Shown one piece after another: positions 2,907 through 10,581 of a stretch of 40,166 nucleotides of DNA. A model generated the notes under the pieces. That model ran no database searches and was not told where the DNA came from. It worked only from the letters and a program-made list of their open reading frames with translations. The position numbers and the translations under genes are program-made. Source of the DNA: Actinomycetes bacterium (lineage in GTDB: Bacteria > Actinomycetota > Actinomycetes > S36-B12 > CAIYMF01); the NCBI GenBank assembly GCA_029781935.1, contig JAKOVT010000237.1, forward strand, positions 1 through 40,166, read 5' to 3'. How positions within the stretch are numbered: position 1 is the stretch's first letter; each line of letters opens with the position of its first letter.

Positions 2907-2988
2907 CAAATCCTGCCAGCCCGAGAGCGCACGACGGCCGGTCGCTGACGCGCCCGGCCTTCGTGGTGTGTCGGGCTGACAGGATTTG
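2907..2988. repeat. Long imperfect palindrome, copy 2, merging into attL
   Basis: CAAATCCTGCCAGCCCGA ... TCGGGCTGACAGGATTTG (18-bp arms, one mismatch) around a degenerate copy of the GGCCGGTCGC hairpin; about 150 bp from copy 1. Confidence 0.75.
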
Positions 2989-3012
2989 AACCTGCGACCC
3001 CTTGACCCCCAG
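2969..3012. repeat. attL: 44-bp direct repeat equal to the tRNA-Pro(GGG) 3' half
   Basis: tgtcgggctgacaggatttgaacctgcgaccccttgacccccag, identical to 10538-10581. Confidence 0.92.
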
Positions 3013-3090
3013 GGTCGTGCAGCGTGTCTCATGCGGTACCGCGAAGTCTCAGATTCCATTCCCTCCCAAGGGATTCCGTGTCATGCAGTG

Positions 3091-4233
3091 TCAGTCGGTG
3101 GCAGCCGCAGCGCGGCGTGTTGTCCCCCGCGTTGTCCCCATCGGCCGAAGGCTCGCGCCGAGCGCGTGCGACGCGGCGCGCTGCCCCTCCGCGACGGCTA
3201 CGGCGTAGGTGTTCAGCAGCACCGCGGGGTCGTGGCCGAGCTGCGCGGCGACGTCGGCGACGCTCGCGGCACCGGAGGCGAGCAGGGTGCTCGCGGCGTA
3301 GTGCCGACCGGTGTGCGTCCCGGTGTCGGCCACTCCGGCGTCCTTCGCCCACCTCTGCCAGACGCGGGAGAGCGTGCGCGGCTCGACCAGGCGGCCGAGC
3401 TCGGTCGTGACGACCAGGCCGGTCGGCTCCCATGCCGACCCTGCGACGAGCTGCTCGGCCGTCTGGCGCTTCTTGTGAGCCTTGAGCGCCTGGACAACCA
3501 CGGGCGGCACGGGGACGTTCCTGCGGCCCCTACGCGTCTTGGTCGCCCCGCGCTGCAGGCCGGCGCTCGAGCGGGTCACGTTGCCCGAGACGGCCAGCGT
3601 GCCGGCCTTGAGGTCGACCTCGGACCAGCGCAGCGCGAGGACCTCGCCGCGGCGCAGGCCGCATCCGAACGCGAGCCACGCCGCGACCTCGTAGCGGTGC
3701 CCACGGGCCTGCTCGAGGACGGCCTGGGCGTCGTGCGTGCTGACCTCGCGGTTGCGCGCCTCCGGTGCCGGCGGCCGCGGGACCTGGCGCGCGACGTTCA
3801 CGCCGACCAGGCCGGCGTCGACGGCGTAGTCGAGCACCTTCACCAGCGCGGCGTAGGTGGCCCGGCGTACCGACGGGGACGCCCCCGGGAGACGCAGCGC
3901 CGTGGCCGCGGTGCGTTTGTCGAGCCGGTCGAGCCTGACGTCGTGGAGCTGCGTCAGGTGCGCGCGGATGAGGGTGGCGTACTGGTCGCGCGTCGTCGGC
4001 CGCAGCCCGACCGACGACGGGTCGAGGGAGCACCACTCGGCGTACAGCTCGCCGAACGTTTCGCGCGCCGGCCGCTCCCCCACGATCGCCGCGCGCGCCT
4101 CGGCCTGCGCCTGCGCGTCGTCCTTGGTCGCGCCGTATCCGTCGACCCGTTGGCCGTTCACCAGGATCCGGTAGCGCCAGCGCTTCCCCGGCCGGCGCTC
4201 GAACGTGCCTTCGCCGTTCCTGCGCTTGCTCAT
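3091..4233 (-). CDS. int: Tyrosine recombinase/integrase (380 aa)
   Basis: MSKRRNGEGTFERRPGKRWRYRILVNGQRVDGYG...; 'GCGLRRGEVLALRWSEVD', 'HTGRHYAASTLLASGAASVADVAAQLGHDPAVLLNTYA'; adjacent to attL. Confidence 0.95.
   Translation of the reverse strand: MSKRRNGEGTFERRPGKRWRYRILVNGQRVDGYGATKDDAQAQAEARAAIVGERPARETFGELYAEWCSLDPSSVGLRPTTRDQYATLIRAHLTQLHDVRLDRLDKRTAATALRLPGASPSVRRATYAALVKVLDYAVDAGLVGVNVARQVPRPPAPEARNREVSTHDAQAVLEQARGHRYEVAAWLAFGCGLRRGEVLALRWSEVDLKAGTLAVSGNVTRSSAGLQRGATKTRRGRRNVPVPPVVVQALKAHKKRQTAEQLVAGSAWEPTGLVVTTELGRLVEPRTLSRVWQRWAKDAGVADTGTHTGRHYAASTLLASGAASVADVAAQLGHDPAVLLNTYAVAVAEGQRAASHALGASLRPMGTTRGTTRRAAAATD
3119..3139. repeat. Putative integrase arm-type site (left): two GTTGTCCCC repeats
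   Basis: GTTGTCCCCCGCGTTGTCCCC; near-identical pair at 10457-10478 by attR; overlaps the int 3' end (encodes MGTTRGTTRR). Confidence 0.6.
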
Positions 4234-5027
4234 GACTCCGCCTTCCGTCGCGCGCGGCGCTCGCGTTCGGCCTGCGCCTTGGCGCAGAGGTTGGAGCAGT
4301 ACTTCACGCCCCGCTCACGGGGCCCGTAGCCGTTGCGCCCGCGACGCGCCGAGCGCTGGCGAGTGAACGGTCGGCGGCACGTGATGTTGGCGCAGTGCTG
4401 CACCGCCACTCCGTCAGTGGCCAGCATCGCGAGTTGGCGCACGGCCACCTCGTACAGGCAGGGCTCTCGGGCGAGATAGCCGCGCCGTTCCCAACCCGCG
4501 TCGTCGACGACGATGTGCATCTGGAAGCGGGAAAGGCCGGCGTTCATGTAGTCGACCCACCAGCCCAGCGCCAGCGACGCGGAGTGCGGGGTGTTGAACC
4601 CCTCCGTGGCCCAGGCTTCGCGGACGTCGTCATCGGTCACAGACGCCAGCCAGAACCTTGACAGTGCCCGCAGGCAGTGCAGGTGGTGCAGCTCGGTCGC
4701 CAGGACCCATCCCGAACGATCGTGGGTCCGCAGATTCCCTCGCTCCCGAGGATCGGGCGGCAGCAGGTCTAGGGCGGAACCGCCGGGTGGCGTCAGCGGG
4801 CCCCACGCCTGGACGAAGGCCAGCACCCCATCCTCTGACGTCTCGGCTTCTAGCACCTCGCGCAGCACGAAGTCGTCAGGAAGGTCGACGAGCTCGCCGC
4901 TGCCCATCCACTCGAGACCCGCGTCCGCGGGCCGAAGGTCCCACCGGCGAACGGACGGCAGGGCGCCGGCATCCGCGGGCCACAGAGTGACCGTGGGACC
5001 AAAGGTGGGGGGTTTCGTACCTGGCAT
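4230..5027 (-). CDS. CGNR-type zinc-finger protein (265 aa)
   Basis: C-terminus 'HCANITCRRPFTRQRSARRGRNGYGPRERGVKYCSNLCAKAQAERERR' (CxxxxC...CxxxC pattern); start overlaps the int start region by 4 bp. Confidence 0.7.
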   Translation of the reverse strand: MPGTKPPTFGPTVTLWPADAGALPSVRRWDLRPADAGLEWMGSGELVDLPDDFVLREVLEAETSEDGVLAFVQAWGPLTPPGGSALDLLPPDPRERGNLRTHDRSGWVLATELHHLHCLRALSRFWLASVTDDDVREAWATEGFNTPHSASLALGWWVDYMNAGLSRFQMHIVVDDAGWERRGYLAREPCLYEVAVRQLAMLATDGVAVQHCANITCRRPFTRQRSARRGRNGYGPRERGVKYCSNLCAKAQAERERRARRKAES

Positions 5028-5095
5028 GCGGCCAGCATGCCGTGGGACGGTCGTTGTGTCAATACGACCCACGACGTTTCTAGGAGGTTCCCGCC

Positions 5096-5302
5096 GTGGC
5101 TACAGCCCCAGTCATCCGGCGAGACGGTGCCCTGGTCGAGCCTCGTCGCGCCTACCGCCCCGAGGAGGTCGGCGAGCTTCTCGGCCTGTCCCGCTCGACC
5201 GTGTTCCGCCTGCTCGCCTCCGGAGACCTCGGCTCCATCAAGGTCGGCGCAGCCCGACGGGTCACCGTCGAGCAGCTCGACGCCTACCTGGCGGCCCAGT
5301 GA
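5096..5302 (+). CDS. Helix-turn-helix excisionase-family protein
   Basis: YRPEEVGELLGLSRSTVFRLLASGDLGSIKVGAARRVTVEQLDAYLAAQ: MerR/Xis-type winged HTH; AGGAGG upstream, GTG start. Confidence 0.88.
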   Translation: MATAPVIRRDGALVEPRRAYRPEEVGELLGLSRSTVFRLLASGDLGSIKVGAARRVTVEQLDAYLAAQ

Positions 5303-9508: not shown

Positions 9509-9565
9509 TCGCCCGGGGTCGGCCCCGCCGCGACGGGGGAGACGCAGCAGGGCCGACGTTCGAGG

Positions 9566-9976
9566 CTACTCGACCGCGTCGAGCAGCTCCGAGATCCCCA
9601 GGAACACAAGGCGCGCCTCGGGGATCGTCAGCTCGAGCATGGTCGAGTCGTTGAGCATGAGCACCATGCGGGGGTCGCTCTCCCGCCAGCGCTGCGTGAC
9701 GTAGATCCGCAGGTCGTTCTCGAGCCACTCGAAGCCCCCGCCGCGGGGGTGCTCCCACGCGCGCGGCTTCATCACCTCGAGCGGGTCGATCACTGCGGCG
9801 TACTCGCTGTAGTGCACCCGGTCGTCGGGGTGCTGCCAGGCCGGGTCGTCCCGGTGCTGGCGCTTGCCCGCCTCGGTGCACCACGAGGGGCAGGGACCGT
9901 AGCTGCGCCCCTCGTCCTCGGCGGCCGTCTCCCTCACCCCCGGTCGCGCGACCGGAACGTTCTTCGTCGTCGTCAT
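9566..9976 (-). CDS. DUF6907-like protein
   Basis: MTTTKNVPVARPG...CPSWCTEAGKRQHRDDPAWQHPDDRVHYSEY...; paralogous to the next gene (CPxWC motif, similar C-terminal layout). Confidence 0.7.
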   Translation of the reverse strand: MTTTKNVPVARPGVRETAAEDEGRSYGPCPSWCTEAGKRQHRDDPAWQHPDDRVHYSEYAAVIDPLEVMKPRAWEHPRGGGFEWLENDLRIYVTQRWRESDPRMVLMLNDSTMLELTIPEARLVFLGISELLDAVE

Positions 9977-10347
9977 GACTGCACCCCCGGCACGGTCGTC
10001 AGTACCTCGGCCGCCCGGGCGACCATCGCCGCGAGGTCGCGGAACTGGTCCACCTCGAGCGTGCTGTCGCGACGCGCACCCCCGATCTGGAACTCGACGG
10101 CGTTGCCGGCCATGTTGATGTTGACCTCGGGCGGCACGTCGTAGCCCAGCATCAGGCGGGACACCTCGCTCAGGACCAGGCGGACGTCGGTGTCCTCGTC
10201 GATGGATGCCAGCACGCGTGTGTGCCAGATGTCGTCGAGGGTCCTGACCTCCCGACTGTGGTCTGCGGTGCACCAGTCGGGGCAGTCGAGGCGGATCGGG
10301 ATGCTCACTGTCCGGCCCTCGCTGGTCGGTACGGTGTTCGTGGTCAT
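9973..10347 (-). CDS. DUF6907-like protein
   Basis: MTTNTVPTSEGRTVSIPIRLDCPDWCTADHSREVRTLDD...; 4-bp overlap with the previous CDS. Confidence 0.72.
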   Translation of the reverse strand: MTTNTVPTSEGRTVSIPIRLDCPDWCTADHSREVRTLDDIWHTRVLASIDEDTDVRLVLSEVSRLMLGYDVPPEVNINMAGNAVEFQIGGARRDSTLEVDQFRDLAAMVARAAEVLTTVPGVQS

Positions 10348-10456
10348 GCGGAACTCACCTTTCCGTGTGTCCTGGCCCGCCTGGGATTCGTGCCCGGGCG
10401 GGCCGCCTTGCGTTGGTGCGGGAAGCCGTCCCGCGGCGGATGGTGCCGCGAGTCCC

Positions 10457-10478
10457 GTTGTCCCCCTGCGTTGTCCCC
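10457..10478. repeat. Putative integrase arm-type site (right)
   Basis: GTTGTCCCCCTGCGTTGTCCCC, same orientation as 3119-3139. Confidence 0.6.
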
Positions 10479-10537
10479 AGACGCAGCAGAGGCGGCACCC
10501 GCTCTCGCGTGTACCGCCTCTGACCTGCTGCGATTTC

Positions 10538-10581
10538 TGTCGGGCTGACAGGATTTGAACCTGCGACCCCTTGACCCCCAG
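10538..10581. repeat. attR: 44-bp direct repeat
   Basis: Identical to 2969-3012; lies inside the intact tRNA-Pro gene. Confidence 0.92.

What the first reader, a model, noticed from the sequence alone, without database searches (positions are those of the whole stretch)
2969..10581. Minimal 7.6-kb capsid-encoding integrative element in tRNA-Pro: candidate phage satellite
Seen: a perfect 44-bp att duplication of a tRNA-Pro(GGG) 3' half, integrase at one end, Xis-like protein, small ORFs, then one HK97-type major capsid gene. I find no portal, large or small terminase, maturation protease, tail, lysis or polymerase gene. Established: small M. tuberculosis prophage-like elements (phiRv1/phiRv2) and capsid-forming phage-inducible islands combine an integrase with capsid-module genes and lack a full virion set. 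Inference: this may be an even more reduced satellite that supplies its own shell, perhaps to impose a smaller capsid, and borrows protease, packaging and tails from a helper. The intact capsid frame argues against simple decay, although two decayed-looking segments exist in the element.
Basis: partly seen in the sequence, partly recalled or inferred. Interest (0 to 1): 0.88.

Follow-up and report, generated by a model that had tools for sequence, protein, structure and literature searches.

The report
Capsid-only phage satellite in tRNA-Pro
A 7.6-kb mobile DNA element sits in a bacterial tRNA gene and carries one virus shell gene but none of the other core phage particle genes; similar small elements turned up at other tRNA genes across the Actinomycetota, so it is probably a stripped-down phage parasite that brings its own shell protein and borrows the rest from a helper phage.

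Summary
A 7.57-kb element (2969-10581) is bounded by a perfect 44-bp duplication of a tRNA-Pro(GGG) 3' half. It carries an integrase, a zinc-finger-like protein, Xis, small ORFs, one intact HK97-type major capsid protein (MCP), one small post-capsid gene and two DUF6907 genes. No portal, protease or large terminase was found in it or anywhere in its genome.

It is not a one-off deletion. Among 44 Actinomycetota MCP loci with flanks, 18 have an integrase but no portal or TerL nearby. Thirteen of these are bounded by direct repeats at tRNA/tmRNA genes; those without insertion sequences and with a full-length MCP span 7.5-10.8 kb. In the window MCP's own clade, phage contigs with enough upstream DNA always have a protease next to the MCP (55/55) and nearly always a portal (53/55). 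The window MCP and that of a similar element in another bacterial family form a clade apart from 55 phage MCPs (support 100/96) and share two insertions.

Best reading: a phage satellite that supplies its own shell protein. Relatives are already called 'candidate PICIs' in Mycobacterium. Phylum-wide spread and MCP as sole recognised core virion gene are the new parts. Packaging and helper are unshown.

The parts
2969..3012 (.). left att repeat (44 bp; duplicate of tRNA-Pro 3' half)
   Evidence: perfect repeat
10538..10581 (.). right att repeat (44 bp, inside the intact tRNA-Pro)
10539..10613 (-). intact tRNA-Pro(GGG), integration target
   Evidence: ARAGORN; continuous across the joined flanks in congener G009
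3091..4233 (-). tyrosine integrase, 380 aa
   Evidence: PF00589 5.5e-15, phrog_1 2e-51
4230..5072 (-). 280-aa protein with C-terminal CGNR-like zinc finger (name by analogy), overlaps the integrase by 4 bp; accessory or regulatory gene
   Evidence: no family match; homologue in satellite L045 (33%, E=9e-30) and beside an integrase and tRNA-Arg in L188; relatives on Streptomyces plasmids, one annotated CGNR
5096..5302 (+). excisionase/AlpA-like HTH, 68 aa
   Evidence: TIGR01764 2.3e-11, PF12728
5478..6041 (+). winged-HTH-like ORF, 187 aa, possible replication initiator or regulator
   Evidence: weak HTH matches only
6005..6400 (+). small ORF, 131 aa (start uncertain)
   Evidence: ORF only; no family
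6397..6672 (+). zinc-ribbon-like small protein, 91 aa
   Evidence: weak matches
6677..7026 (.). decayed-looking segment between two perfect 29-bp direct repeats (6677-6705, 6998-7026)
   Evidence: antisense peptide has no Pfam match
7103..7333 (+). small ORF, 76 aa, upstream of the MCP; 80- and 82-aa ORFs sit in the same place in L021 and L041
   Evidence: homology not shown
7609..8850 (+). HK97-type major capsid protein, 413 aa, with N-terminal helical delta-like domain
   Evidence: PF05065 and TIGR01554; AlphaFold model; Foldseek to GTA, HK97 and cf-PICI EcCI2 capsids
9000..9215 (+). small post-capsid gene, 71 aa; homologue of the gene directly after the MCP in the full phage L020
   Evidence: 46% over 41 aa, E=1e-12; phrog_2616 1.2e-4
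9566..9976 (-). DUF6907 protein, 136 aa
   Evidence: PF21848 8.9e-8
9973..10347 (-). DUF6907 protein, 124 aa
   Evidence: PF21848 2.3e-9

Best explanation
The element is an integrated phage satellite that carries its own shell protein. Int and Xis move it in and out of the tRNA-Pro gene (anatomy shown, activity inferred). When a helper phage is active, the element excises and expresses its MCP (inferred). Helper portal, maturation protease, terminase and tails then complete a small head built wholly or partly from the element's MCP, sized for about 8 kb and too small for the helper genome (inferred). It belongs to a recurrent class of 7.5-11 kb integrase-plus-MCP elements in Actinomycetota that lack portal and large terminase; some members keep their own small terminase or protease (shown).
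For: Ends at a perfect tRNA duplication with an empty-site congener. Eighteen of 44 MCP loci have an integrase but no portal or TerL nearby (L066 counted as phage). Thirteen of them are bounded by direct repeats at tRNA/tmRNA genes, 7.5-10.8 kb where no IS has landed and the MCP is full length. PF04860 and PF04586 have no match in the whole genomes of G000, G261, G388, G243, G349, G320, G392 and G338. In the window MCP's own clade 55/55 phage contigs have a protease just upstream and 53/55 a portal, so the absence is not low sensitivity. Window and L021 MCPs form a clade with support 100/96 against 55 phage MCPs, share insertions at residues 113-117 and 320-322, and their elements share layout: Int(-), Xis(+), MCP(+), DUF6907(-). 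MCP omega is 0.07-0.10 and 61 of 70 phage-conserved positions are kept. The helical delta-like domain is retained although the element has no protease, which fits borrowing. Its 7.57 kb lies in the 7.3-8.5 kb range of small MCP-coding gut contigs modelled as T~2.33 or T=3 heads (PMC7762592). Relatives carry a small terminase (L058 phrog_83 5.9e-31; L052 weak) and replication genes (L045, L052, L053, L061).
Against: No replication gene, TerS or packaging site was recognised in the window copy. No resident helper of the searched families is in the genome. No encapsidated or circular form was found: viral-contig relatives of this MCP are ordinary phages wherever enough upstream DNA is held. Some relatives look decayed (L071, L072), so loss does happen. 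The integrase-plus-MCP state is polyphyletic: 7-10 changes on the tree.
Confidence: 0.62

Rival explanations
1. Decayed prophage: a full phage lost packaging, tail and lysis genes, and the MCP is a leftover.
For: Polyphyletic origin (7-10 changes); decayed-looking 6677-7026 with 29-bp repeats; degenerate members L071 (integrase split by an IS) and L072 (5 kb, truncated MCP); the gene after the MCP is the one found in a phage.
Against: Random loss should not repeatedly spare integrase and MCP while removing portal and TerL within intact att ends of 7.5-10.8 kb; the window MCP is full length, omega 0.07-0.10, and shares a clade and insertions with a second such element.
Confidence: 0.18
2. The MCP is an anti-phage weapon: it co-assembles with or poisons helper heads, or triggers abortive defence, without carrying the element's DNA.
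For: One capsid gene is enough for a dominant-negative effect; no packaging gene was recognised in the element; a phage capsid protein is a known trigger of a bacterial immune system (PMC9712102, title).
Against: Retention of integrase and Xis, and the presence of TerS in sister elements, point to DNA packaging.
Confidence: 0.12
3. Domesticated HK97-fold shell (encapsulin-like compartment) on a mobile element.
For: Single shell gene; HK97 fold.
Against: Phage_capsid families, helical N-terminal delta-like domain, phage relatives at 44-51% identity, nearest solved structures are GTA and phage capsids, a phage post-capsid gene follows.
Confidence: 0.03

Closest known systems
Candidate PICIs of Mycobacterium and phiRv1/phiRv2 (PMC10654092); small prophage-like elements such as phiMmcs_2, 9.3 kb (PMC3986857)
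   Same: Integrase plus major capsid gene in a small element, often at a tRNA gene, without a full virion gene set
   Different: Described in Mycobacteriaceae; there some carry terminase, scaffold or helicase genes. Here the MCP and one post-capsid gene are all that is recognised, and relatives occur across the phylum
Capsid-forming PICIs (cf-PICIs)
   Same: Carry their own MCP; the cf-PICI EcCI2 capsid is among the best Foldseek matches
   Different: cf-PICIs carry portal, protease, connectors and both terminase subunits (as summarised in PMC10690885); this element has no portal, protease or terminase
Classical PICIs/SaPIs
   Same: Size, att site, integrase and divergent Xis/AlpA-like gene
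   Different: As described in PMC10690885 they divert helper shells and packaging with scaffolding proteins, TerS or Rpp; here an MCP is carried instead, and no TerS or primase was recognised
Mulch and Flayer satellites of Streptomyces phages (PMC10690885)
   Same: Actinobacterial hosts; satellites that supply their own capsid
   Different: They carry both terminase subunits, portal, scaffold, MCP and adapter
Small circular gut contigs of 7.3-8.5 kb with an MCP (PMC7762592)
   Same: Size and MCP content
   Different: Known only as metagenome contigs, treated there as small tailed phages; gene content not compared here

Membership tests
Candidate PICI as defined in PMC10654092 (integrase plus MCP region outside prophages) | integrase and major capsid gene together | tested here: met
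Candidate PICI as defined in PMC10654092 (integrase plus MCP region outside prophages) | not an intact prophage | tested here: met
   no portal, TerL or protease match in element or genome
Classical PICI | own integrase and att site, small size | tested here: met
Classical PICI | replication module (primase/Rep) | tested here: inconclusive
   only a 187-aa HTH-like ORF; clear replication genes in L045, L052, L053, L061
Classical PICI | TerS or capsid-diverting gene | tested here: not met
   no TerS by PHROGs or own HMM; that HMM covers few TerS families
Classical PICI | induction and packaging by a helper | not testable with these tools
   needs experiment
cf-PICI | MCP with portal, protease, connectors and terminase | tested here: not met
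Full or recently defective prophage | packaging, tail and lysis genes | tested here: not met
   packaging genes absent; no tail or lysis family matched any ORF scanned
Encapsulin | encapsulin family shell without delta domain, cargo gene nearby | tested here: not met
   Phage_capsid/TIGR01554 match, N-terminal helical domain
Actinomycete integrative and conjugative element | FtsK-like transfer and Rep genes | tested here: not met
   no such family matched

The most novel reading that the evidence does not exclude
A widespread actinobacterial class of satellites donates only the shell protein. Its MCPs, captured several times from phages and then adapted (in the window lineage by insertions next to the delta-domain boundary), impose a T<=3 head that borrowed portal, protease, terminase and tail complete, which would make it the most reduced capsid-bringing satellite known.
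Probability: 0.35. Interest if true: 0.82.

Novelty: new variant of a known kind. Interest (0 to 1): 0.6.

Why it matters
If true, one gene (the shell protein) is enough to turn an integrative element into a capsid-bringing satellite, and this has happened several times in Actinomycetota. It gives a direct system for asking how MCP sequence sets head size, what a foreign MCP needs from a helper portal and protease, and whether tailed-phage shells below T=4 exist. It also means many small 'prophage remnants' in Actinomycetota may be functional satellites.

Tried and rejected
Close relatives of the MCP by back-translated patterns in genome contigs gave only a distant Bosea locus; the L021 MCP in viral contigs gave none. 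The zinc-finger protein has no relative in viral contigs or phages. Encapsulin and conjugative-element readings were rejected by family matches. The Tajima test with L075 as outgroup was discarded because the tree groups L075 with L020; with phiC31 as outgroup rates are equal (44 vs 42), but phiC31 is far. On the clade tree the window and L021 end branches (0.89, 1.2) are longer than the phage median (0.3), so some relaxation or thin sampling cannot be excluded. Codon-position differences were uninformative because third positions are held GC-rich. E-values of the iterated HMMs are inflated because hits were in the profiles; Pfam/PHROG searches are independent. A 13-member MCP alignment was too diverse for contig scans. 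The antisense peptide between the 29-bp repeats has no Pfam match.

Full report
Observation. The 44-bp repeat is perfect and occurs only at 2969-3012 and 10538-10581. The intact tRNA-Pro(GGG) is at 10539-10613 on the minus strand. A query made of the two joined flanks aligns in one piece to congener G009 over query 24-323 at 74%, consistent with an empty site. The tRNA plus right flank also align in several other congeners, which argues that the contig belongs to this genus despite 8.67% contamination of the assembly.

Content. Minus strand at the left: integrase (3091-4233) and a 280-aa protein with a CGNR-like zinc finger (4230-5072). Plus strand: Xis (5096-5302), an HTH-like ORF (5478-6041), small ORFs, MCP (7609-8850) and a 71-aa gene (9000-9215). 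Minus strand at the right: two DUF6907 genes (9566-9976, 9973-10347). The 71-aa gene matches the gene that directly follows the MCP in the 34.5-kb Streptomyces phage-plasmid NZ_CP108372, 46% over 41 aa, so MCP and the next gene look like one captured piece of a head module. PF04860, PF04586 and phrog_2 find no portal, protease or TerL in the whole assembly, nor do HMMs built here from relatives, with filters off, in the window.

Is it a singleton? PF05065 in 397 Actinomycetota genomes gave 61 MCP loci in 46 genomes. I took flanking sequence for 44 (window, L021, L023, L024, L034-L073). Twenty-three have portal and/or TerL (L066). Eighteen have an integrase but neither. Some of these add TerS (L024, L052, L058, L060, L069) or a protease (L023, L051, L064), and L023 and L057 hold ORFs that look tape-measure-like by eye, so they are not MCP-only. 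Three are unresolved (L042, L046, L054). Thirteen of the 18 are bounded by direct repeats at tRNA or tmRNA genes: L061 (Ala, 7.54 kb), window (Pro, 7.57), L045 (Leu, 8.16), L041 (Glu, 8.35), L064 (Arg, 8.46), L053 (Lys, 8.61), L052 (Leu, 8.75), L024 (Gly, 9.49), L058 (Val, 10.8), and, with insertion sequences or decay, L060, L069, L071 and L072.

Control for sensitivity. Of 55 viral contigs in the window MCP's clade with at least 3 kb upstream, 55 have the protease and 53 the portal upstream of the MCP. The window and L021 have neither.

Phylogeny. On a 49-row tree, satellites and phages intermix: 10 changes, at least 7 forced by supported branches, against 14.7 in shuffles. The integrase-plus-MCP state therefore arose, or decayed, several times. 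In the window's own clade, window and L021 are sisters, first with SH-aLRT 97 and then with 100/96 against 55 phage MCPs. They share insertions at window residues 113-117 and 320-322 that are absent or rare in those phages. Residues 113-117 lie near the end of the helical N-terminal domain, where maturation cleavage would be expected (inference). The L021 element, in a different bacterial family, has Int(-), XRE(-), Xis(+), helicase-like(+), MCP(+) and DUF6907(-), but no att repeat was found for it.

Selection. In codon models omega is 0.066 (window, L021, L112) and 0.095 (window, L097, L112), against 0.030-0.060 for phage-only sets; fixing omega at 1 costs 142 and 150 lnL units. Divergence is high, so this speaks for the long run, not for the most recent past. 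Third-position GC is 0.93-0.96 along the whole gene and 61 of 70 phage-conserved positions are kept.

Structure. The AlphaFold model has mean pLDDT 72 with helices 3-27, 34-74 and 81-98 ahead of the HK97 core. Best Foldseek and sequence matches are the Rhodobacter GTA capsid, then phages, cf-PICI EcCI2 and HK97. Retaining a cleavable-type N-terminal domain without a protease fits borrowing one (inference).

Mechanism and comparison. The best reading is a satellite that donates the shell protein; excision, helper dependence, packaging and head size are inferred. Integrase-plus-MCP regions in Mycobacterium, including phiRv1/phiRv2, were proposed as candidate PICIs without experimental proof (PMC10654092), and a 9.3-kb element with an MCP among four annotated genes was listed in 2014 (PMC3986857). 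Gut contigs of 7.3-8.5 kb with an MCP were modelled as T~2.33 or T=3 shells (PMC7762592). What is new here is the reduction to MCP plus one post-capsid gene, the spread across Actinomycetota families, and a satellite-specific MCP lineage shared by two host families. The paper library is incomplete, so an earlier description elsewhere cannot be excluded.

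Noticed in passing
window 2741-2985: Left of the element the tRNA-Pro 3' tail (TGTCGGGCTGACAGGAT) and its terminator-like hairpin are present twice, with an 85% repeat at 2741-2781/2894-2934: possible scar of an earlier integration at the same site.
   Followed up: partly
window 6677-7026: Two perfect 29-bp direct repeats 321 bp apart enclose a segment whose minus strand encodes a regulator-like peptide fragment with no Pfam match.
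   Followed up: partly
window 34726-36465: A second tyrosine integrase family ORF (PF00589 2.7e-45, with SAM-like N-terminal domain) outside the element; could be a XerC/D-type gene.
   Followed up: partly
L060 and L069 (G491): Two related MCP+TerS elements in one genome, each carrying an IS21-like transposon (by eye), one at tRNA-His and one at tmRNA.
   Followed up: no
L064 8645-10363: Protease and MCP appear fused in one 572-aa ORF in an 8.5-kb element bounded at tRNA-Arg.
   Followed up: no
L072 7612-12603: Five-kb remnant at tRNA-Ala with a truncated MCP, an example of decay of such an element.
   Followed up: no
L188 9216-12642: Integrase, two Xis-like genes and the zinc-finger gene next to tRNA-Arg at a contig end in G207, which has MCP loci on other contigs.
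   Followed up: partly
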